A stretch of DNA of 39,737 bases from assembly GCA_019455105.1 (NCBI GenBank), contig JACFMZ010000013.1:1-39737 (forward strand). Reading direction: 5' to 3'. Below are positions 4,226 to 13,258 of this stretch, piece after piece. How positions within the stretch are numbered: position 1 is the first letter of the stretch; the number at the start of each line of letters is the position of its first letter. Source of the DNA: Bacteroidota bacterium. GTDB lineage: Bacteria > Bacteroidota > Ignavibacteria > UBA10030 > UBA8401. The notes under the pieces are model-generated. The model saw only the letters and a list, made by a program, of their open reading frames with translations, ran no database searches and was not told the DNA's origin. The translations under genes and the position numbers were made by a program.

Positions 4226-5377
4226 TTATTTGCGTGCTTCGACAATTGAGGCACGAACAATATCATTCATGTAAGCAGGGTTATGAACTCCATTGCTGCC
4301 GTCATGAAGCAGAGTCATATAGTTCATCAAAATTCCTGCGCGTGCTGCCGGTTTGAAGACAATCGGTTTTGCTGAAGTAGCAAGAATACCATTATCATTG
4401 TCAATCCAACCCTTAGCTACTAACAATGATTTCAAGGTGTCCATGTTAGCTTGAAATGCGGTTTGTTTGCCGTTATAATCAAACTTTGTAATTGAAGTAT
4501 GGCAGGTTTTGCAGGTCGTTAATAACTGTGCAGGTGTTGTTGAGCCGTGAGCGACAAATTCCATTTTCATCGTATGACCGCCAATTTGCGCACCGTATGC
4601 TTGTCCCGGAGTAATCGGACTTACATTTTCCATATGGCATGCTACACAACCATCGGTTTTAATTACGCCGCTTGAGTGTGCAGCAGTTTTTGTATAAGTT
4701 GCTGCAGTTGTAAATTGGAATGCGCCGACGCCGGTTAACATTTGGCTTTGCACTCCGTAGTGTGTATACCATCGGTTATTAGTTACAACAAGAGAATCCG
4801 TTGCGCCTGTTTTTGTCGGATCCGGCATCGGGCTAATTGTACGCGGGCGATGGCATGAGGCGCACAAATTTCCTTTTCCTAAATCAAACGTTGCATCTGC
4901 AACGCCAACAATACTTGCCGGTAATGCTACAGGAGTTGTGGTGCGGAGTGAAAAATCTCCGGTGGAATGAGGCTTATGACAGGCAAAGCATCCTGGAGGA
5001 GTCGGATTAAGAATATTGGTTACCGGCTTGCCTGCTTGTTTCAGTTGGTATGCTTCGGTGGTATGGCATTCTGCGCAGCCTGAGCTATATTCTGACCACG
5101 CTGTGCCATTGCCGTGTGTTGAATTTTCCCACTGTTTAACTTTCCCGGCAACAAAAAATGTTGTGTCAATATCAGGAGTATGACATGTTGCACATTTTAA
5201 ATCTGTTTTAAAACCGTCAAAATAGACAAATCCGGCATTTGCACCATCTTTTCCATTAAGACCATCTTTTCCATCTTTGCCTGCTAGACCTTGCGGACCG
5301 GCGGGACCTTCCGGACCTTTGCAAGCATTAAGAGAAAAAGCAAGCGCTATAAGTACAATAGTAGCTAACTTTTTCAT
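4226..5377 (-). CDS. 6-haem c-type cytochrome lipoprotein with collagen-like stalk
   Basis: I chose the ATG at 5375-5377 (383 residues) because it has AGGAG about 10 bases upstream and begins a signal peptide (MKKLATIVLIALAF) ending in the lipobox LNAC. Straight after the lipidated Cys19 come nine Gly-X-Y triplets (residues 21-47, GPE GPA GPQ ... GKD GAN), a collagen-like linker. Six CXXCH motifs follow (CATCH, CAECH, CFACH, CASCH, CVACH, CKTCH), with scattered extra His residues that could be distal ligands. Predicted to be an outer-membrane-anchored electron carrier, with the stalk holding the haem domain away from the membrane. It is the last gene of the cluster. The 127-base gap upstream holds a 19-base palindrome and may contain its own promoter. 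Role inferred, not shown. Confidence 0.85.
   Translation of the reverse strand: MKKLATIVLIALAFSLNACKGPEGPAGPQGLAGKDGKDGLNGKDGANAGFVYFDGFKTDLKCATCHTPDIDTTFFVAGKVKQWENSTHGNGTAWSEYSSGCAECHTTEAYQLKQAGKPVTNILNPTPPGCFACHKPHSTGDFSLRTTTPVALPASIVGVADATFDLGKGNLCASCHRPRTISPMPDPTKTGATDSLVVTNNRWYTHYGVQSQMLTGVGAFQFTTAATYTKTAAHSSGVIKTDGCVACHMENVSPITPGQAYGAQIGGHTMKMEFVAHGSTTPAQLLTTCKTCHTSITKFDYNGKQTAFQANMDTLKSLLVAKGWIDNDNGILATSAKPIVFKPAARAGILMNYMTLLHDGSNGVHNPAYMNDIVRASIVEARK
5237..5317 (-). repeat. Collagen-like Gly-X-Y repeat coding segment
   Basis: Nine consecutive GXY triplets (27 residues) follow directly on the lipobox Cys of the 6-haem cytochrome. Three start GP and three are GKD. Short bacterial collagen-like tracts of this kind are known as stalks on surface lipoproteins. 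Confidence 0.9.
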
Positions 5378-5434
5378 ACGAGTACTGCTCCTTTCAAAAA
5401 TAACATCTATTTTTTTAGTGACGTTGTTCTTACC

Positions 5435-5504: not shown

Positions 5505-6332
5505 TTAGAAATCTACCTTTCCGTTAAGATGAAGTGATTTATTTACAAAATTCAAATTTGCATCAACAACATGAACATGACATTGATAACATTGCAATAC
5601 TGTTTTTCCGTCAACTCTATTCGGATGTGTTCCTCCCTCTTCAACAGTTTTCGGACGTGCACGATCTTCTTTATCACTTCTGGTTATATCGCCATGGCAG
5701 GTTCCGCATAGAGCGCCGTTTCCTGTGGTATCAGTCCAAAGAACTTTATTAGACTGATTTCCATTTTGAAAATTTCCATGACAGTATATGTTGGAACATT
5801 TATTATCAGAAAAATTATACGACGGATTTGTTGCGAAATATCCCGTAGTATCAAAATGTATTTCTGCGCCTTTTACGCCGTCTAGATGACCGGGCGATGT
5901 TACCTTTGAAGGAGAAATATGACAGGTTGAACACGAATATCCGTAGGAAATATGCACTTGATGTGCGCCGACACCGTGAGCAGAGCGATTAATGTTTCCT
6001 GCTAAATCTGTCGGCGGCGCCGGATTGACTCCGCCGTGACAAGTTGTGCAATTTTCAGGACCATTCCGTTTTGAGTGACAGGTTAAGCACGATTTTTGCG
6101 ACGTACCGCCGGCATAGTTTGCACCGTGACATGCTTTACAGGCTTGAATATCCCAATTATGTCCCTGAATATATTTTACATGTGAGTTTGATGAAACGGG
6201 ATTAGCAAATCCTTCACCGTGAATACTCGCAGTAGGCTGTGTCGGCGGATTTTCCTGCTGCAGTTTGCTGCAAGCATTAAGAAAGAGCGAAGCAAAGACA
6301 ATTACTGCAAAAAGAGAAATTTGTTTTTTCAT
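5505..6332 (-). CDS. 7-haem c-type cytochrome lipoprotein with CX4CH motif (Geobacter-type CxxxxCH/CxxCH)
   Basis: 275 residues. The signal peptide (MKKQISLFAVIVFASLF) ends in a lipobox LNAC with Cys21. Six CXXCH motifs (CKACH, CLTCH, CTTCH, CSTCH, CGTCH, CYQCH) and one CX4CH motif (CSNIYCH, DNA 5778-5798) give seven possible haems. The order CX4CHG, then a W-containing stretch, then CGTCHG matches the C4xCH...C2xCH repeat family described from Geobacter outer-surface cytochromes. The ATG has GGTGAG upstream and lies 12 bases after the stop of the 14-haem gene, so they are co-transcribed. Predicted outer-membrane lipoprotein electron carrier. The cell-surface location is inference. Confidence 0.86.
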   Translation of the reverse strand: MKKQISLFAVIVFASLFLNACSKLQQENPPTQPTASIHGEGFANPVSSNSHVKYIQGHNWDIQACKACHGANYAGGTSQKSCLTCHSKRNGPENCTTCHGGVNPAPPTDLAGNINRSAHGVGAHQVHISYGYSCSTCHISPSKVTSPGHLDGVKGAEIHFDTTGYFATNPSYNFSDNKCSNIYCHGNFQNGNQSNKVLWTDTTGNGALCGTCHGDITRSDKEDRARPKTVEEGGTHPNRVDGKTVLQCYQCHVHVVDANLNFVNKSLHLNGKVDF

Positions 6333-6344
6333 AATGCTCTCACC

Positions 6345-7559
6345 TTACTTAGTTCCATGACAGTAACCGCAGAAACCGATTCCTGCTTTTCCGTTAATTT
6401 TTGAATTTGGATCGGTATGACAGACGTAACAATTTGCACCGCGGTCATCGTGCCATGGTCCGTGGACATCTTTCATAAAACCAATTTTATGCGTTCGCGG
6501 ATTCGTTCCTTTCACTCCATCCGGATCGATATGGCATGTCGTACACGTCGGGTCATCGCCTTCCGCATCATGACATGAAGCGCACGAGGCAATATCACGT
6601 TTAGCAAGTGTTGCATGCACTCCGCCGCCCGAACCGACACCGAGTGTGGTAAATCCCGGTTGGTCGTGGCTGATTGGCTTCGCTCCGCCAAGTGCTGCAC
6701 TTCCGTTTTGATGGCAGTCAGAGCAAAATTGCTGATCACGATGGCAGGTCTGGCAATCCAATGCCTTTCCTCTTGCTTCAATTCCATGCGTAAACCGGAA
6801 ATTAATATCGTGAACCATTTGTCCTTTTAATGCAAGCGCACCGTTGTTTCCTGCCGTTCGAGGAGAAATTAAACCGATACTTTCCTTCGGATTTAATTTT
6901 GTCAAATTATCGCCGTCATGACATTGTTCGCAGAAATTAGCGCTGTGGCATGATTGACACTGTGCATCCATTGTACGCAATCGCGTCATCTGTCCGTGTT
7001 CTTTTTTAAATGAAGCGAGTGAATGAGAAACCGGACGAAGATTGGCAACATTCTTATGGCATGTTTCACATTCATTATTTGTTCTTACATTATTATGACA
7101 CGTTGAGCAGGTTGCCATATCAGGAAGATTAGCCGCCATTGCAAAATCCGTTTTATCCATATTTTTATGGCAGGTTTCACATTCAACTTTTTGTTCTTCA
7201 ATATGCATTTTATGATTAAAATTAATATCAAAGACCGGAGTCGGAAGCGGCTGCGGATCGTCGCCGTTGGCATGGCAGAATGCGCAATCTTCATCGACTT
7301 TTTCTTGATGGCAGGACTGGCATTGATCATGTCCCGGTAAAACTTTTTCAGTAGAATTCGTACTTTCAGAAATTTTATCATGGCACGCAGCACAATCAAC
7401 ACCGAGTTCAGCATGTTTGCTGTGTGAGAATTTAAAGAGTTTTGTTTTATCCGTTTGCTGGAATTCATCGTCAGAGGCGAAACCTTTCCCGACTGATAAT
7501 AAGGCGGCAACAAGAATAACAATACCGAAGAACAGAATTTTTGATGTTATAGATTTCAT
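6345..7559 (-). CDS. 14-haem periplasmic c-type cytochrome
   Basis: I chose the ATG at 7557-7559 (404 residues). The in-frame GTG at 7574 overlaps the GAGGA ribosome binding site that serves this ATG. A cleavable signal peptide (residues 1 to about 28, ending near GFAS) has no lipobox Cys, so the protein should be soluble in the periplasm or bound to the barrel. Fourteen CXXCH motifs were counted, many preceded by FSHSKH- or NFNHKMH-type His motifs about 10-20 residues before, as in cytochrome c7/c3-type repeats. No CXXCK or other reductase signature is present, so an electron conduit rather than an enzyme. It starts 11 bases after the barrel gene, suggesting they form a pair. Confidence 0.88.
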   Translation of the reverse strand: MKSITSKILFFGIVILVAALLSVGKGFASDDEFQQTDKTKLFKFSHSKHAELGVDCAACHDKISESTNSTEKVLPGHDQCQSCHQEKVDEDCAFCHANGDDPQPLPTPVFDINFNHKMHIEEQKVECETCHKNMDKTDFAMAANLPDMATCSTCHNNVRTNNECETCHKNVANLRPVSHSLASFKKEHGQMTRLRTMDAQCQSCHSANFCEQCHDGDNLTKLNPKESIGLISPRTAGNNGALALKGQMVHDINFRFTHGIEARGKALDCQTCHRDQQFCSDCHQNGSAALGGAKPISHDQPGFTTLGVGSGGGVHATLAKRDIASCASCHDAEGDDPTCTTCHIDPDGVKGTNPRTHKIGFMKDVHGPWHDDRGANCYVCHTDPNSKINGKAGIGFCGYCHGTK

Positions 7560-7570
7560 ATTCTTCGTCC

Positions 7571-8860
7571 TCACAATAAATTCAATTTATCTGATAAATA
7601 ATAACTTGCCTTGATAAAAACACGCAGGTCATTTTTAAATTGCGGATTATTCATCCATTGTAATTGGAAGTCCGTCATAAGCATCTTCATCGGGCGGTAG
7701 GTTACACCGGCAAGCAGACTTAACACAGAATTACTTGGTGCTTCTTTACTTAATTTATACGAGGCATATCCGAAACCGACCGAAGGCGTAAGCAAAAGAT
7801 CTTGCAGCGGATAAACGGCAAACACATTGATGCCGTTTAGATCTCCCGCATAGCCGAAATTTTTTGTATAATTAAACGTTAAAAAATCATACATACCGCC
7901 AATGGATAACCGCTGACTGTTATCATCGACATACGACACATTTGCAAACCGTGCAAACAATCTCGTCTTTGGAAGAATTTGATATTCAACGGAACCTTCA
8001 AGTTCTTTTGTACTGCCGAAGTTAAAAACAGAGAAGATAGAATTATATGCTAAGCGCGGCTCGTGAAACAAATAATCCGCGGCTATTGATAAATTTTTCA
8101 CAACAAAATATTTTGCGGAAATCTGAGCCCGTGAAAATTTCTCTCCAATCATATCATAATCAGAGCGTGCATACACATTGAACGATTCCGGTGAATCATA
8201 CAACAAATCAATGCTGGTAAATTCTTCTTCGTTCGGACGGCTGTAAAACACAACATACTGCGGGTCAAATGATGAATCGGCAAGGTTCGGACGAATGCCG
8301 CTGTAGCTTTCTCGTTTCCATAACTTGCTTATGTAACTGATTCCGATTGCTCCGTTTTCAATTGGGGAATATGAAAGAAGCGCGCCGTACATTGAATTAT
8401 CTGTTAACGATTGGTTCAAGTTCCAATCGCGGGTACGGATGACATTCAAACCGCCGTATGCCGTAATGCCGAACGTGTTATCAAAAAATTTTCGTTCTAC
8501 TAAATAACCGTCCATAATGCCGCTGCCGACACCGGCATAAACAAATTGGCGGCCCACAGAAATATCTGCAACGCCGCCAATATTGTTTCCTTTCACCATT
8601 AAGGAGGGGATTCGTAATTCAGGATCCGATGCTATCGCTGTTCCGAAATCATTGGAAACCTGAAAGTTGGTAAGAAATTGAAATTGCTCATTAGCAATAT
8701 TAAGATGCACCTGTTCATAACCGCGTGCATAGAGCGTGCTTGATCGTGCGCTGTCAATTCCCTGCCAGCCGTAGAACGATGTAGTAAACCGGCTCGTTAA
8801 AAGTTGTGCATGCGATGCAAACACAACAGCAAAGATTAGCGCTAAACTTGTTTTGAACAT
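7571..8860 (-). CDS. Predicted outer-membrane beta-barrel protein of the cytochrome cluster
   Basis: I chose the ATG at 8858-8860 (429 residues) because AAGGA lies 7 bases upstream and it begins a signal peptide (MFKTSLALIFAVVFASHAQ). The mature part has no Cys and consists of alternating polar/aromatic strands (FTTSFYGWQG, FQFLTNFQVSNDFG, FNVYARSDYDMIG, RVFIKASYYL), the pattern of a barrel with perhaps 16-20 strands. It lies between a c554-type and a 14-haem cytochrome with short gaps. By analogy with porin-cytochrome complexes (MtrB, OmbB) it could carry a multihaem protein across the outer membrane. I do not recognise MtrB motifs. The C-terminus ends in Leu, not the usual aromatic residue, so the role is inference. 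Confidence 0.72.
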   Translation of the reverse strand: MFKTSLALIFAVVFASHAQLLTSRFTTSFYGWQGIDSARSSTLYARGYEQVHLNIANEQFQFLTNFQVSNDFGTAIASDPELRIPSLMVKGNNIGGVADISVGRQFVYAGVGSGIMDGYLVERKFFDNTFGITAYGGLNVIRTRDWNLNQSLTDNSMYGALLSYSPIENGAIGISYISKLWKRESYSGIRPNLADSSFDPQYVVFYSRPNEEEFTSIDLLYDSPESFNVYARSDYDMIGEKFSRAQISAKYFVVKNLSIAADYLFHEPRLAYNSIFSVFNFGSTKELEGSVEYQILPKTRLFARFANVSYVDDNSQRLSIGGMYDFLTFNYTKNFGYAGDLNGINVFAVYPLQDLLLTPSVGFGYASYKLSKEAPSNSVLSLLAGVTYRPMKMLMTDFQLQWMNNPQFKNDLRVFIKASYYLSDKLNLL

Positions 8861-8912
8861 AGACAAATCCTTCTCTTTCGTTTGCATCGGCACATAACGA
8901 TTCACATCAAAA

Positions 8913-9428
8913 TTATTTTTTTAACGGATGAGCAATTTTTGCCATCGCTTCCTTAAAGTTAAATCCTTTAAAGGTCGGGCTATCGCTGTTATGGCATTCT
9001 TTACAAGTTTTTTCATCACCAATAACTAAACCGGCAGCTTTTGCTTTTTCCTTGTTTTCGGGTTTGCTGTGAATAGTTTTATATGCTGATGCAGCGCCGT
9101 GGCAGGATTCGCATTGAACGCCTTCATCAATTTTATATGTTTTATCTTGCGGCTTTCCGTAACCGGCAACGTGACATTTTAAACACTCAGGAGATTCTGC
9201 GGCTGGTTTTGATAAGCCTTTTTTCTTTGCAATTTCATTTGCCTTATCAGTCAACAAAGTTTTATACGCTTTAGCGTGATCAGAACCTTCCCATATCTTT
9301 ACCTGATTTCCATTTTTCTCTAATTTGTGGCAGGTGCATCCTTTCATGCCGATATATTTATTCTGCCCAAACGCGGAAACTGCAAAAATCATTACGCCAA
9401 AAACCAGTAGAGTAGCAATTCGTTTCAT
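8913..9428 (-). CDS. Cytochrome c554-type tetrahaem protein with a CXCH first motif
   Basis: 171 residues. The signal peptide (MKRIATLLVFGVMIFAVSAFG) is followed by IWEGSDHAKAY, GYG, EGVQCESCHG and KTCKECHNS, the framework of the cytochrome c554/c-prime family of small periplasmic electron carriers. Three normal motifs are present (CLKCH, CESCH, CKECH). The first site reads GCTCHK, a CXCH with one residue fewer than the standard CXXCH (codons at 9327-9338). Whether it still binds haem is unknown. The ATG has a strong AAGGAG site upstream. It heads the second half of the cluster after a 177-base gap and is probably the soluble carrier between the inner-membrane and outer-membrane components. 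Confidence 0.86.
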   Translation of the reverse strand: MKRIATLLVFGVMIFAVSAFGQNKYIGMKGCTCHKLEKNGNQVKIWEGSDHAKAYKTLLTDKANEIAKKKGLSKPAAESPECLKCHVAGYGKPQDKTYKIDEGVQCESCHGAASAYKTIHSKPENKEKAKAAGLVIGDEKTCKECHNSDSPTFKGFNFKEAMAKIAHPLKK

Positions 9429-9605: not shown

Positions 9606-11105
9606 TTATTCCCCTGTATGGCAGTCATTACAATTCATCGTCTGCCATGAATCGCCTATATCCACCGGATGAATAAATTCTTCACCCTTGGGAGAAAGGT
9701 GCGTTAATTTATCATTCGGACCTTGAGAAAGAATTGTATGACAGGTATTGCAATCTTTTGAAATAACTGCTCCCGTTTTTTTCGAAACATGTTTCCCATC
9801 GTGGCAGCGGAAGCATCCGGCATACGCATAATGCCCCACATTATTTGGATAATGCGTCCAATTGGCTTTCATCTCCGGGAAAATTGTGTAAGAATAGGTT
9901 CGCTGTAAACTTACAATGGCAGAATCAATTTCTGATTTGTGTTTCTTACCTACTTCAGGATACGTTATTGAATAACTATCACGAATTGTTTTTTCAATTC
10001 CCTTTAACGCTTCCGTTTCTGTAGCGTACTCTTTTGTAAACGCTGAAGAAGCAATTGTTCTAATTGAAGGAAGCTTTGGCGATACCAAGCCGGCAGACAT
10101 TAACGAATTAATTGATTCTTCCGGTGTGCGGTAAATATGCGTCGGACGATTATGGCAATCAATACAATCCATCTTTCGTTTTTCACCAGTTGCTAATTTC
10201 GTTGTATCAAAATCATCCGTTGTAACATAAACATCTTCATAGCCGTTGGGTTTTGAAATATGCACAACGGGAATTACCTGCCGCTGCGAATCAATGGATG
10301 TATAGGTAACGGCATTTTCCGGATTGACATGCCAGTGAATGCCGGATGTTGTTCCTGTTTGAAGATGTCCGCCGCTGACTTTCATTAACAGCGAAACGCT
10401 CCACGGAGAATTTTTTTCATCCTGCGCGTAATATGTTTTCGTTACCTGCTTATCCGAAATAAAATGCTGAGGCCAGTGACATTGTTCACATGTTCCCTGC
10501 GCCGGACGCAGATTATGAACCGGCGTGGGAATAGGACGTGAAAATAAATTAAATGTTACCGAAAGAATTTGATACGCACCGGAAATTTTCGATTTCACAT
10601 ACCAATCCGCGCCGGAGCCGACATGACATTCGGCGCAGGTAACACGCGCATGAGGCGAATGCCGGTACGCCGTGTATTCCGGTTTCATAACATCGTGGCA
10701 AATCTCTCCGCAGAAAACAACCGACTCGGTAAAATCGTAGACTTGATAACTTCCGAAAGCAGAAGCGAGAAAAACAAAAAGAGTGATTACTGCAAGAAAG
10801 CCAAATTTCTTTCTGTGTGCAGGGTTGTTAAAATCAATACTCGGATATTCGCCATGCTCAACGCCGGCACGCGCACGCCGTCTCTTTTCCAAGCGCATAC
10901 CGAAGGCAACAAGTAAAAGTCCGCCGATGAAAAACACCGGAAGAATAACAAATGCTATAATTCCAATATAGGGGCGGGAATGTTCCGCAATACTATCCAT
11001 AACGTACAAAAAGATAATCAGCATGAAACTTACCAGAGAAACAGCCGACCCCGCCATACTGATGGGATTATAATATATTGAGGGAAGAAATTTTTTAAAT
11101 CTCAT
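9606..11105 (-). CDS. NapC/NirT-type 7-haem inner-membrane cytochrome (ImcH-like layout)
   Basis: 499 residues. Three membrane helices at about residues 17-37, 45-68 and 101-123 are followed by a periplasmic domain with seven haem motifs: CGEICH (a CX3CH), CAECH, CEQCH, CIDCH, CFRCH, CNTCH and CNDCH. The first motif is followed by MKPEYTAYRHSPHARVTCAECH, the NapC/NrfH pattern of a Met or His ligand region. Family knowledge: NapC/NirT proteins oxidise menaquinol. Geobacter ImcH, needed for electron transfer to high-potential acceptors, has the same layout of three helices and seven haems. The start has GAGAGA upstream and lies 26 bases after the CbcL-like gene. ImcH orthology is likely but rests on layout; closer kin could be other NapC homologues. 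Confidence 0.85.
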   Translation of the reverse strand: MRFKKFLPSIYYNPISMAGSAVSLVSFMLIIFLYVMDSIAEHSRPYIGIIAFVILPVFFIGGLLLVAFGMRLEKRRRARAGVEHGEYPSIDFNNPAHRKKFGFLAVITLFVFLASAFGSYQVYDFTESVVFCGEICHDVMKPEYTAYRHSPHARVTCAECHVGSGADWYVKSKISGAYQILSVTFNLFSRPIPTPVHNLRPAQGTCEQCHWPQHFISDKQVTKTYYAQDEKNSPWSVSLLMKVSGGHLQTGTTSGIHWHVNPENAVTYTSIDSQRQVIPVVHISKPNGYEDVYVTTDDFDTTKLATGEKRKMDCIDCHNRPTHIYRTPEESINSLMSAGLVSPKLPSIRTIASSAFTKEYATETEALKGIEKTIRDSYSITYPEVGKKHKSEIDSAIVSLQRTYSYTIFPEMKANWTHYPNNVGHYAYAGCFRCHDGKHVSKKTGAVISKDCNTCHTILSQGPNDKLTHLSPKGEEFIHPVDIGDSWQTMNCNDCHTGE

Positions 11106-11131: not shown

Positions 11132-13258
11132 TTATTCGTTATTTTCTTTTTGCTCTTCTTCAAGACGCTTTCTTTCTTCTTCTTTTATCCGTTCCAATTC
11201 TAAAGGATGTTCATGCGCCATTTCTTCTTCAGAAATTGTTCCTTTGAACCAGGCAAGATTCATCGGATAGACATCCGGATTGAAAATGATGAAATAGAAA
11301 TGCCACACAACAATGGCAAGGCCGGCAAGCCACGCTTCATAAAAATGAATGGTGCGGGAAACATCCCACCAGAGTTTACCGATTAATCCTAGGAATGTAT
11401 TATCAAACCATAAGATAAATCCGGTAATGCTCATAACAATGGTTCCCCAAATCAACGCCCAATATTCTGCCTTTTCAATATAGGAAAATCTATCCAGCAT
11501 CGGTTTTGTTTGCGAAAGTCCGAGATTATATTTCGCCACACCAAAAGCATCACGCAGATCCTGCAATTTGGGAAGTAAATCTTTAACTAATTTTTTCCCC
11601 CGCTCGGTAAAGAAGATATAATAAATATGATAGATACTTGTGAGAATCATAACCACGGCGGCAACGCGGTGAAGAATTCCGCGGATTTCAAAAATTGTTG
11701 CGCTGATTGAGCGAATAGAAAGCACCCAAAATGCATCGGGATATCTGAGCATAAATCCGGTAACAATTAAGGTGATAAAACTTAACGCCAGTAATCCGTG
11801 CTGGAGTCGTTCGCTGAGAGTCATGCGGAGATATAACGCATGACCGACTTCAACATGTGCAATGCCGGAACGGCGATGACGTAATTTATCGTTTGCCTTT
11901 CTCCAAAAATCTATCACGTTATGAAGAAACATTCCGCCGATAGTAACAACAATTAAAATGATATACAGATTTGAGACAAAATAAATAATATCATTATCTG
12001 TTGCCGTTGTTGTAATAACGTGAACGGCGCCTTTTGCAAAATTTTCATTTGCACCGGGATGACATTTACCGCACGTTTGAGCAAGATTTGCTTTGTTCAC
12101 CGGCGAGCGCGGATCGCTTGAAGGCAAGATATCGTGGAATCCGTGGCAGCTTGCACAATTCGCCGCTTCCGTTGAGCCGGCTTTTACCGCAAGACCGTGA
12201 TAGCTGTCCATAAAGGACTTTGTTCGTCCCGAAGGAAGTCCGTATTTTTCATTTAACTTCACCGAATTGTGACACGGCGAGCACACTTCATTGGAGAGAT
12301 GAAATTTTGAAACCGGTGAATTGGGATCTTTCGGCGCAAGAATTTTATGTTCGCCATGACAATCCGTGCAAACAGGCGAAGACATATTTCCTTTTGCAAA
12401 CGAAGTTCCGTGAATACTTTCTTTATACGTTGCGGCAATATCCGCATGACACTTCGCACAGGTGTTCGGAATATTTTTCTTATTCACAGTTGAATTGATA
12501 TCGCTCCCTTTACTCATTTCATGACTGCCGTGGCAATCAATACACGTTGCCGCTGTTCCGTTCCCATGCCGAAGCGCCTGAGCATGCACGCTCTGTTCGT
12601 ATGATTTTATAAACTGTGTCGTAACACCGGTTCCAAGATTTTTATCGCCGTGACAGCTGGTGCACATTTTTTCTTCGGCAAGTTTTACCGCCGCAGTATC
12701 TTTTCGCGCTCCGTTTGAAGGAAGCAATACCGAATGGCACTGAATACAGTTCGGCGCATTTTTATTCTGTGCAGCCAAAGCAATGCCGTGTGCCGATTTC
12801 AAAAAATGTTCTTTTTCTGTTGCATGGCAGGTTCCGCATGCCGTAACAAGATTTTCTTTGCTGAATTTTGAGCCGGCAACATTCGGAGATACAACATTAT
12901 GCGTTCCGTGACACTCTTTACATAATTTACTTTGATCGGCGCCGGAGGCCAATACCGTTTTATGAAAAGCATGTTTCGGAAGATCTTTCGCATGGCAAGA
13001 AGCGCATTGAACCGGTGTAATTTTTTCTTTGTGCGGCAAATCTTCAGGGTTAAAACCGGTATGGCACGTAACGCAGGAAAATTTTTTGTGCGGTGATTTG
13101 TTAAGAGTGCTTTCTTCAACGTAAAGAGAAATTGTCTTTCCGTTCTTCTCCATTGTAAGAGAATTATCGGAATGACATGCTAAACAATCTTCTTTTGTTT
13201 GAGATAATAAAGTCTGAATGGAAATAAATAATAGTGAAAAGAGTAGCAAACGTAGCAT
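11132..13258 (-). CDS. 13-haem cytochrome c fused to membrane cytochrome b domain (CbcL-like layout)
   Basis: 708 residues. A signal peptide (MLRLLLFSLLFISIQTLLS) precedes a periplasmic region to about residue 410 with thirteen CXXCH motifs. These include repeated CxxCHGxH units (CKECHGTH, CIDCHGSH, CTDCHGEH, CASCHGFH) each preceded by a SxHG motif, about 55-65 residues apart. The C-terminal half has about five membrane helices with candidate haem b ligands in ERLQHGLLAL, RGILHRVAAV, SIYHIYYI and VVWHFYFII, as in the FdnI/HydC-type cytochrome b family. The acidic Glu/Lys tail is cytoplasmic. Family knowledge: Geobacter CbcL has a multihaem domain fused to a b-type domain and passes electrons from menaquinol toward low-potential acceptors. 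There is no clear ribosome binding site before the ATG. First gene of the cluster. Confidence 0.85.
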   Translation of the reverse strand: MLRLLLFSLLFISIQTLLSQTKEDCLACHSDNSLTMEKNGKTISLYVEESTLNKSPHKKFSCVTCHTGFNPEDLPHKEKITPVQCASCHAKDLPKHAFHKTVLASGADQSKLCKECHGTHNVVSPNVAGSKFSKENLVTACGTCHATEKEHFLKSAHGIALAAQNKNAPNCIQCHSVLLPSNGARKDTAAVKLAEEKMCTSCHGDKNLGTGVTTQFIKSYEQSVHAQALRHGNGTAATCIDCHGSHEMSKGSDINSTVNKKNIPNTCAKCHADIAATYKESIHGTSFAKGNMSSPVCTDCHGEHKILAPKDPNSPVSKFHLSNEVCSPCHNSVKLNEKYGLPSGRTKSFMDSYHGLAVKAGSTEAANCASCHGFHDILPSSDPRSPVNKANLAQTCGKCHPGANENFAKGAVHVITTTATDNDIIYFVSNLYIILIVVTIGGMFLHNVIDFWRKANDKLRHRRSGIAHVEVGHALYLRMTLSERLQHGLLALSFITLIVTGFMLRYPDAFWVLSIRSISATIFEIRGILHRVAAVVMILTSIYHIYYIFFTERGKKLVKDLLPKLQDLRDAFGVAKYNLGLSQTKPMLDRFSYIEKAEYWALIWGTIVMSITGFILWFDNTFLGLIGKLWWDVSRTIHFYEAWLAGLAIVVWHFYFIIFNPDVYPMNLAWFKGTISEEEMAHEHPLELERIKEEERKRLEEEQKENNE

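What the first reader, a model, noticed from the sequence alone, without database searches (positions are those of the whole stretch)
5237..5317. Collagen-like stalk between lipid anchor and multihaem domain
Nine uninterrupted Gly-X-Y triplets start two residues after the lipobox Cys of the 6-haem cytochrome. If these trimerise, three 6-haem heads would be held together on a rod away from the outer membrane, a simple way to build a surface haem brush.
Basis: partly seen in the sequence, partly recalled or inferred. Interest (0 to 1): 0.6.

Follow-up and report, generated by a model that had tools for sequence, protein, structure and literature searches.

The report
Collagen-like tether on surface cytochrome
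A surface-type, six-haem electron-transfer lipoprotein from an uncultured Ignavibacteria-type bacterium is joined to its lipid anchor by a short, real collagen-like Gly-X-Y stretch, but comparison with about 80 relatives suggests a variable-length tether that relatives and the well-studied MtrC also carry, rather than a three-stranded rod.

Summary
In detail: 4229-5377 (-) encodes a lipoprotein (SLNAC^KGPEGPAGPQGLAGKDGKDGLNGKDGAN-AGFVYF...) with nine uninterrupted Gly-X-Y triplets and six CxxCH motifs. It is the only 7+-triplet run in this 3.03 Mb genome. The gene ends a conserved porin-cytochrome-like cluster (barrel, 14-haem cytochrome, second lipoprotein cytochrome, this one). All 31 barrel-linked relatives found carry the tract right after the lipobox Cys.

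The trimeric "haem brush" is not supported. Tract length runs from 3 to 9 triplets among those relatives (11-15 in a few others) and changes at least nine times on the tree; 16 of 31 have five or fewer. Nine triplets with three prolines and no KGE/KGD pair should not hold a triple helix alone. Structure prediction leaves the tract disordered. Shewanella MtrC and MtrF have the same kind of 5-triplet tract, and one MtrC sits in its complex.

The tract is still not a random linker: Gly is invariant while X and Y vary, and Pro sits in X (110 versus 20). The same C-E-G-P-Gly-X-Y leader heads many unrelated small lipoproteins across the phylum. Best reading: an extended tether that lets an OcwA/NrfA-like head dock on the conduit. 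Trimers in long-tract members are not excluded.

The parts
5321..5377 (-). Lipoprotein signal peptide MKKLATIVLIALAFSLNA and lipobox Cys19 (codon 5321-5323)
   Evidence: translation; lipobox conserved in relatives; Cys19 invariant in alignment A1
5388..5394 (-). Shine-Dalgarno-like AAAGGAG upstream of ATG 5375-5377
   Evidence: sequence
5237..5317 (-). Collagen-like tract, nine Gly-X-Y triplets (residues 21-47)
   Evidence: orthologous tracts
5207..5236 (-). Conserved junction AGFVYFDGFK between tract and head
   Evidence: invariant residues A48-F53 and G55-K57 in 11 close relatives
4229..5194 (-). Six-haem head, residues 62-383; MtrC/MtrF II-IV Pfam domain, closest solved structure OcwA (6i5b)
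5505..6332 (-). Second lipoprotein cytochrome (lipobox LNAC-SKLQQ; 6 CxxCH plus one Cx4CH), no Gly-X-Y tract
   Evidence: conserved neighbour in 29 of 31 barrel-linked loci
6345..7574 (-). Periplasmic-type 14-CxxCH cytochrome, candidate trans-barrel wire
   Evidence: near the barrel in 31 of 31
7571..8905 (-). Outer-membrane beta-barrel (ORF used for the model 7574-8863), about 22 predicted strands, candidate porin of the conduit
   Evidence: mean pLDDT 82; outer-membrane barrels only
8913..9428 (-). Cytochrome c554-like small multihaem protein of the cluster (3 CxxCH)
9606..11105 (-). NapC/NirT/NrfH-type multihaem protein, candidate quinol-side partner
11132..13258 (-). Multihaem (13 CxxCH) plus cytochrome b561-type membrane protein, candidate quinol-side partner

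Best explanation
The tract is an extended, hydrophilic tether of variable length. Shown here: it lies directly between the lipobox Cys and a six-haem head; it keeps the Gly-X-Y register while X and Y vary; its length changes by whole triplets; it is present in every barrel-linked relative found. Inferred: the lipoprotein is placed on the outer face of the outer membrane, and the tether (27 residues, up to about 8 nm if fully extended) lets a single OcwA/NrfA-like head dock on the barrel/14-haem conduit, or on the neighbouring second lipoprotein cytochrome. The head then receives electrons and passes them to an extracellular acceptor. Inferred: it works as a monomer and its exact length is not critical.
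For: All 31 barrel-linked relatives have the tract but at 3-9 triplets, 16 of 31 with five or fewer. At least nine changes between long (6+) and short or absent states on a head-domain tree, including sister pairs 6/3, 6/4 and 7/3. The tract is disordered in the model, pLDDT 31-38. MtrC and MtrF have the same placement (CGGSDGNNGNDGSDGG; CGGSDGDDGSPGEPGKP), and MtrC acts as one subunit of MtrCAB (PMC7096707). The Gly-X-Y leader is also attached to many unrelated small lipoproteins in the phylum. A rod holding heads about 8 nm off the membrane would put their haems out of tunnelling range of the conduit (inference).
Against: A plain flexible linker does not need Gly at exactly every third residue. 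Gly is invariant over the first three triplets of 45 tracts, while X and Y amino-acid identity is 61% and 27% and Gly codon third bases are nearly random. That points to a structural constraint which this reading does not explain. Surface localisation and monomeric state are untested. MtrC's state in its complex is a precedent from another family.
Confidence: 0.6

Rival explanations
1. One reading: three tracts wind into a collagen triple helix, giving a rod with three six-haem heads (a haem brush).
For: Strict Gly register kept by selection; Pro mostly in X, 110 versus 20, no aromatic residue, as in bacterial collagens (PMC3368898); the 27-mer matches triple-helical collagen peptides in the PDB, best E 0.008; some relatives reach 11-15 triplets.
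Against: Many conserved orthologues have only 3-4 triplets. (Gly-Pro-Hyp)6 melts at 10 C and (Gly-Pro-Pro)10 at about 27 C (PMC7824840), while this tract has three Pro in 18 X/Y positions and no KGE/KGD pair. No trimerisation domain recognised; the closest solved head, OcwA, is a monomer/dimer. Pfam Collagen below cut-off, 18.7 versus 27.2 bits.
Confidence: 0.13
2. The first residues (Cys-Glu/Lys-Gly-Pro...) are a sorting or surface-export signal for lipoproteins, and the repeat merely grew from it.
For: 26 of 45 cytochrome tracts and 33 of about 49 unrelated lipoproteins begin Cys-Glu-Gly-Pro; most of the shortest tracts keep it; Bacteroidota lipoprotein export signals sit right after the Cys (PMC5080379).
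Against: Known export signals are K-(D/E)2, Q-A-(D/E)2 or SDDDD-like, and Cys-Glu/Lys-Gly-Pro does not match them. The neighbouring lipoprotein cytochrome in the same cluster lacks the motif. A signal would not need 9-20 triplets.
Confidence: 0.17
3. Neutral repeat expansion: a short Gly-X-Y motif lengthens by slippage and is tolerated, with no function of its own.
For: Length varies by whole triplets between close relatives (7 versus 6 in L130/L131); local runs such as GTN x4 and GPE x6.
Against: Successive triplet units differ at the DNA level and Gly codons use all four third bases, so the register is maintained by selection; present in all barrel-linked relatives found.
Confidence: 0.1

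Closest known systems
MtrC / MtrF of Shewanella (OmcA/MtrC decahaem surface cytochromes, TIGR03507)
   Same: Lipid-anchored outer-surface multihaem cytochrome with about five Gly-X-Y triplets directly after the lipobox; partner of a porin plus periplasmic cytochrome
   Different: Ten haems in four domains; tract shorter and proline-poor; the window protein does not match TIGR03507
OcwA, nonahaem surface terminal reductase of Thermincola potens (PDB 6i5b)
   Same: Best profile match (E 9e-10) and best fold match (Foldseek E 4e-4, prob 1.0)
   Different: Nine haems, not a Gly-X-Y lipoprotein, Gram-positive cell wall; TM-score only 0.41, so a fold relative, not an orthologue
Porin-cytochrome (Pcc) gene clusters, described in Ignavibacterium album and Melioribacter (PMC4245776, PMC7399161)
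   Same: Barrel + periplasmic multihaem + outer-surface lipoprotein cytochrome, with quinol-side partners alongside
   Different: 14-haem periplasmic protein, barrel without recognised Pfam/NCBIfam family, OcwA/NrfA-like six-haem surface cytochrome on a Gly-X-Y tether; homology to OmbB/MtrB not shown here
Bacterial collagen-like proteins (Scl, phage EPcl; Pfam PF01391)
   Same: Gly-X-Y register, Pro in X, GPA/GPE/GPQ/GKD triplets
   Different: Far shorter, below Pfam cut-off, no known trimerisation domain

Membership tests
Collagen-like (triple-helical) proteins | Uninterrupted Gly-X-Y register with collagen-type X/Y composition | tested here: met
Collagen-like (triple-helical) proteins | Passes the curated Pfam Collagen cut-off | tested here: not met
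   18.7 bits against 27.2
Collagen-like (triple-helical) proteins | Forms a trimeric triple helix | not testable with these tools
   only single-chain prediction available; tract disordered as a monomer
Porin-cytochrome (Pcc/Mtr) system | Outer-membrane barrel, periplasmic multihaem cytochrome and outer-membrane lipoprotein cytochrome encoded together | tested here: met
Porin-cytochrome (Pcc/Mtr) system | Barrel homologous to MtrB or OmbB | tested here: inconclusive
   no family match; generic outer-membrane barrels by fold
Porin-cytochrome (Pcc/Mtr) system | Electron transfer across the outer membrane | not testable with these tools
   needs biochemistry
OmcA/MtrC decahaem family (TIGR03507) | Family model above cut-off, ten haems | tested here: not met
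   no TIGR03507 match; six CxxCH; only the shared Pfam domain PF22113 is met (50.3 against 30 bits)
OcwA-type terminal reductases | Nine haems with OcwA fold | tested here: not met
   six CxxCH; partial fold match, TM 0.41

The most novel reading that the evidence does not exclude
In members with long tracts (9-15 triplets) the Gly-X-Y stalks do form short membrane-anchored collagen triple helices, so that surface cytochromes are displayed as trimers. This would be a collagen-built electron-transfer array, and the same leader would trimerise a wide class of small Bacteroidota lipoproteins.
Probability: 0.12. Interest if true: 0.7.

Novelty: new variant of a known kind. Interest (0 to 1): 0.36.

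Why it matters
Surface cytochromes must sit within tunnelling distance of their conduit, and how their lipid tethers are built is hardly discussed. No paper found in the open library searched links collagen-like sequence to extracellular electron-transfer cytochromes. Here a selected Gly-X-Y register of changing length recurs in porin-linked cytochromes, in MtrC/MtrF and in many small lipoproteins. That makes the question directly testable by linker swaps and oligomer-state measurements.

Tried and rejected
Chance Gly run: rejected (only such run in the genome; conserved in all barrel-linked relatives). Peculiarity of this one cytochrome: rejected. Membership in TIGR03507: rejected. A perfect link between tract and barrel: not held; all barrel-linked proteins have it, but three distant relatives (L163, L164, L174) have it with no barrel in the fetched DNA. 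Survey of OmcA/MtrC N-termini in other phyla through the genome search: not possible. Trimer prediction: no tool for complexes.

Full report
Observation. The reading is exact. On the - strand, ATG 5375-5377 (AAAGGAG upstream) starts MKKLATIVLIALAFSLNAC followed by K and nine uninterrupted triplets GPE GPA GPQ GLA GKD GKD GLN GKD GAN at 5237-5317, then AGFVYFDGFK and a head with six CxxCH motifs. The run is not chance: it is the only place in the 3.03 Mb genome with seven or more Gly codons at three-codon spacing, in six frames.

Surroundings. Reading along the - strand, the cluster is: multihaem/cytochrome b561 protein, NapC/NrfH-type protein, c554-like cytochrome, beta-barrel, 14-CxxCH cytochrome, a second lipoprotein cytochrome (6 CxxCH + Cx4CH), and finally the Gly-X-Y cytochrome. 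The barrel model has about 22 strands (mean pLDDT 82) and matches outer-membrane barrels. In the named-genome scan (79 loci, the closest mostly Ignavibacteria and Bacteroidota MAGs) 31 relatives have the barrel homologue close by on the same strand. All 31 have the 14-haem homologue and 29 the second lipoprotein cytochrome. This is a porin-cytochrome-like arrangement, a kind already described for Ignavibacterium album and Melioribacter (PMC4245776; PMC7399161). Outer-surface placement of the Gly-X-Y protein is inferred from this, not shown.

The head. Pfam gives the MtrC/MtrF II-IV domain (50.3 bits, cut-off 30). A profile search of solved structures gives OcwA (6i5b, E 9e-10) and NrfA-type nitrite reductases; a fold search of the predicted head gives OcwA (E 4e-4, TM 0.41). 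The NCBIfam OmcA/MtrC family is not met. OcwA occurs as monomer and dimer (PMC6703420).

The tract across relatives. In 45 cytochromes with a tract there are 273 triplets. Lengths range from 3 to 15; among the 31 barrel-linked ones they are 3 (6 cases), 4 (9), 5 (1), 6 (6), 7 (6), 8 (2), 9 (1) (one locus missed by the script, L143, was read by eye as six). On a tree of head domains, long tracts (6+) need at least nine gains or losses, and sister pairs differ 6/3 (L156/L160), 6/4 (L143/L147) and 7/3 (L144/L146). Distant relatives in Zixibacteria and other phyla mostly have a lipobox and no tract. So the module is conserved with tracts far too short for a rod.

Selection on the register. In the first three triplets from the Cys, Gly is invariant over 45 tracts. 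Pairwise amino-acid identity is 61% at X and 27% at Y, and Gly third-base identity is only 31%. Tracts were chosen as uninterrupted runs of at least three, so some of the invariance is by selection of data, but all barrel-linked relatives with a readable N-terminus qualified. Pro is at X 110 times and at Y 20 times, with no aromatic residue, as in bacterial collagens (PMC3368898). The charged triplet is mostly GKD (K in X, D in Y), the reverse of the usual placement reported there. This is a real collagen-like signature, and it is the main evidence that keeps the trimer reading alive.

Why a stable triple helix is unlikely. (Gly-Pro-Hyp)6 melts at 10 C and (Gly-Pro-Pro)10 at about 27 C, and KGE/KGD pairs are the stabilising charged motif (PMC7824840). 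The window tract has nine triplets, three Pro, no KGE/KGD, and bacteria lack the prolyl hydroxylase (PMC3368898). The single-chain model leaves it disordered (pLDDT 31-38). A trimer would need help from the head, and no trimerisation domain is recognised. Trimer prediction could not be run here.

How general it is. In 296 genomes of the phylum, 81 hold at least one Cys-x-(Gly-x-x)6 stretch; some of these are chance, as the reversed-pattern control shows. Of 60 candidate places read, most are small lipoproteins without haem that start Cys-Glu-Gly-Pro and carry 5-20 triplets (49 sequences; Pro 51% at X, 8% at Y). The five of these scanned have no Pfam domain beyond a sub-threshold Collagen match. 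In Shewanella, MtrC has CGGSDGNNGNDGSDGG and MtrF CGGSDGDDGSPGEPGKP at the same place. A Gly-X-Y leader after a lipobox is therefore a recurrent way to tether surface lipoproteins, including cytochromes, and MtrC is a subunit of MtrCAB with MtrA and MtrB (PMC7096707; one copy of each per complex is from my own knowledge).

Most likely mechanism. The tether model has the fewest unshown steps: an extended, soluble spacer of adjustable length lets a lipid-anchored head reach and dock on the conduit. It also respects distance: a stiff rod of about 8 nm would carry the haems away from the barrel-bound wire unless the second lipoprotein cytochrome bridges the gap (inference). What it does not explain is why Gly must come at every third residue even in short tracts; this stays open. 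A sorting role of the Cys-Glu-Gly-Pro start is a rival; it does not match the published Bacteroidota export signals (PMC5080379).

Verdict. Observation confirmed; collagen-like nature real; trimeric haem brush not supported but not excluded. Interest is moderate: no paper found in the open library searched connects collagen-like sequence with electron-transfer cytochromes, and the question is easy to test.

Noticed in passing
L080, L083, L096, L103, L111 and others: Many small lipoproteins across the phylum share a Cys-Glu-Gly-Pro Gly-X-Y leader with up to 20 triplets; single genomes (G170, G291, G303) hold seven to nine matches, some close together. The five scanned have no Pfam domain after the leader.
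   Followed up: partly
L163, residues after lipobox: A Candidatus Eisenbacteria relative has an 11-triplet tract with six GPE in a row running straight into the first haem motif, with no barrel in the fetched DNA.
   Followed up: partly
L116 (G021) and L124 (G019): Two tandem, diverged copies of the Gly-X-Y cytochrome sit side by side in these genomes.
   Followed up: partly
window 7571-8905 and 6345-7574: Barrel with no Pfam/NCBIfam match, always near a 14-haem cytochrome; possibly an undescribed porin family of Pcc type.
   Followed up: partly
window 5505-6332: The neighbouring lipoprotein cytochrome has one CxxxxCH (CSNIYCH) besides six CxxCH and no Gly-X-Y tract, so the tract is not a general feature of this cluster's lipoproteins.
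   Followed up: no
L168: A Zixibacteria contig carries a barrel and 13-CxxCH cytochrome only distantly related to the window's (barrel 23% identical) next to a relative with four Gly-X-Y triplets: a distant cluster of the same type.
   Followed up: partly
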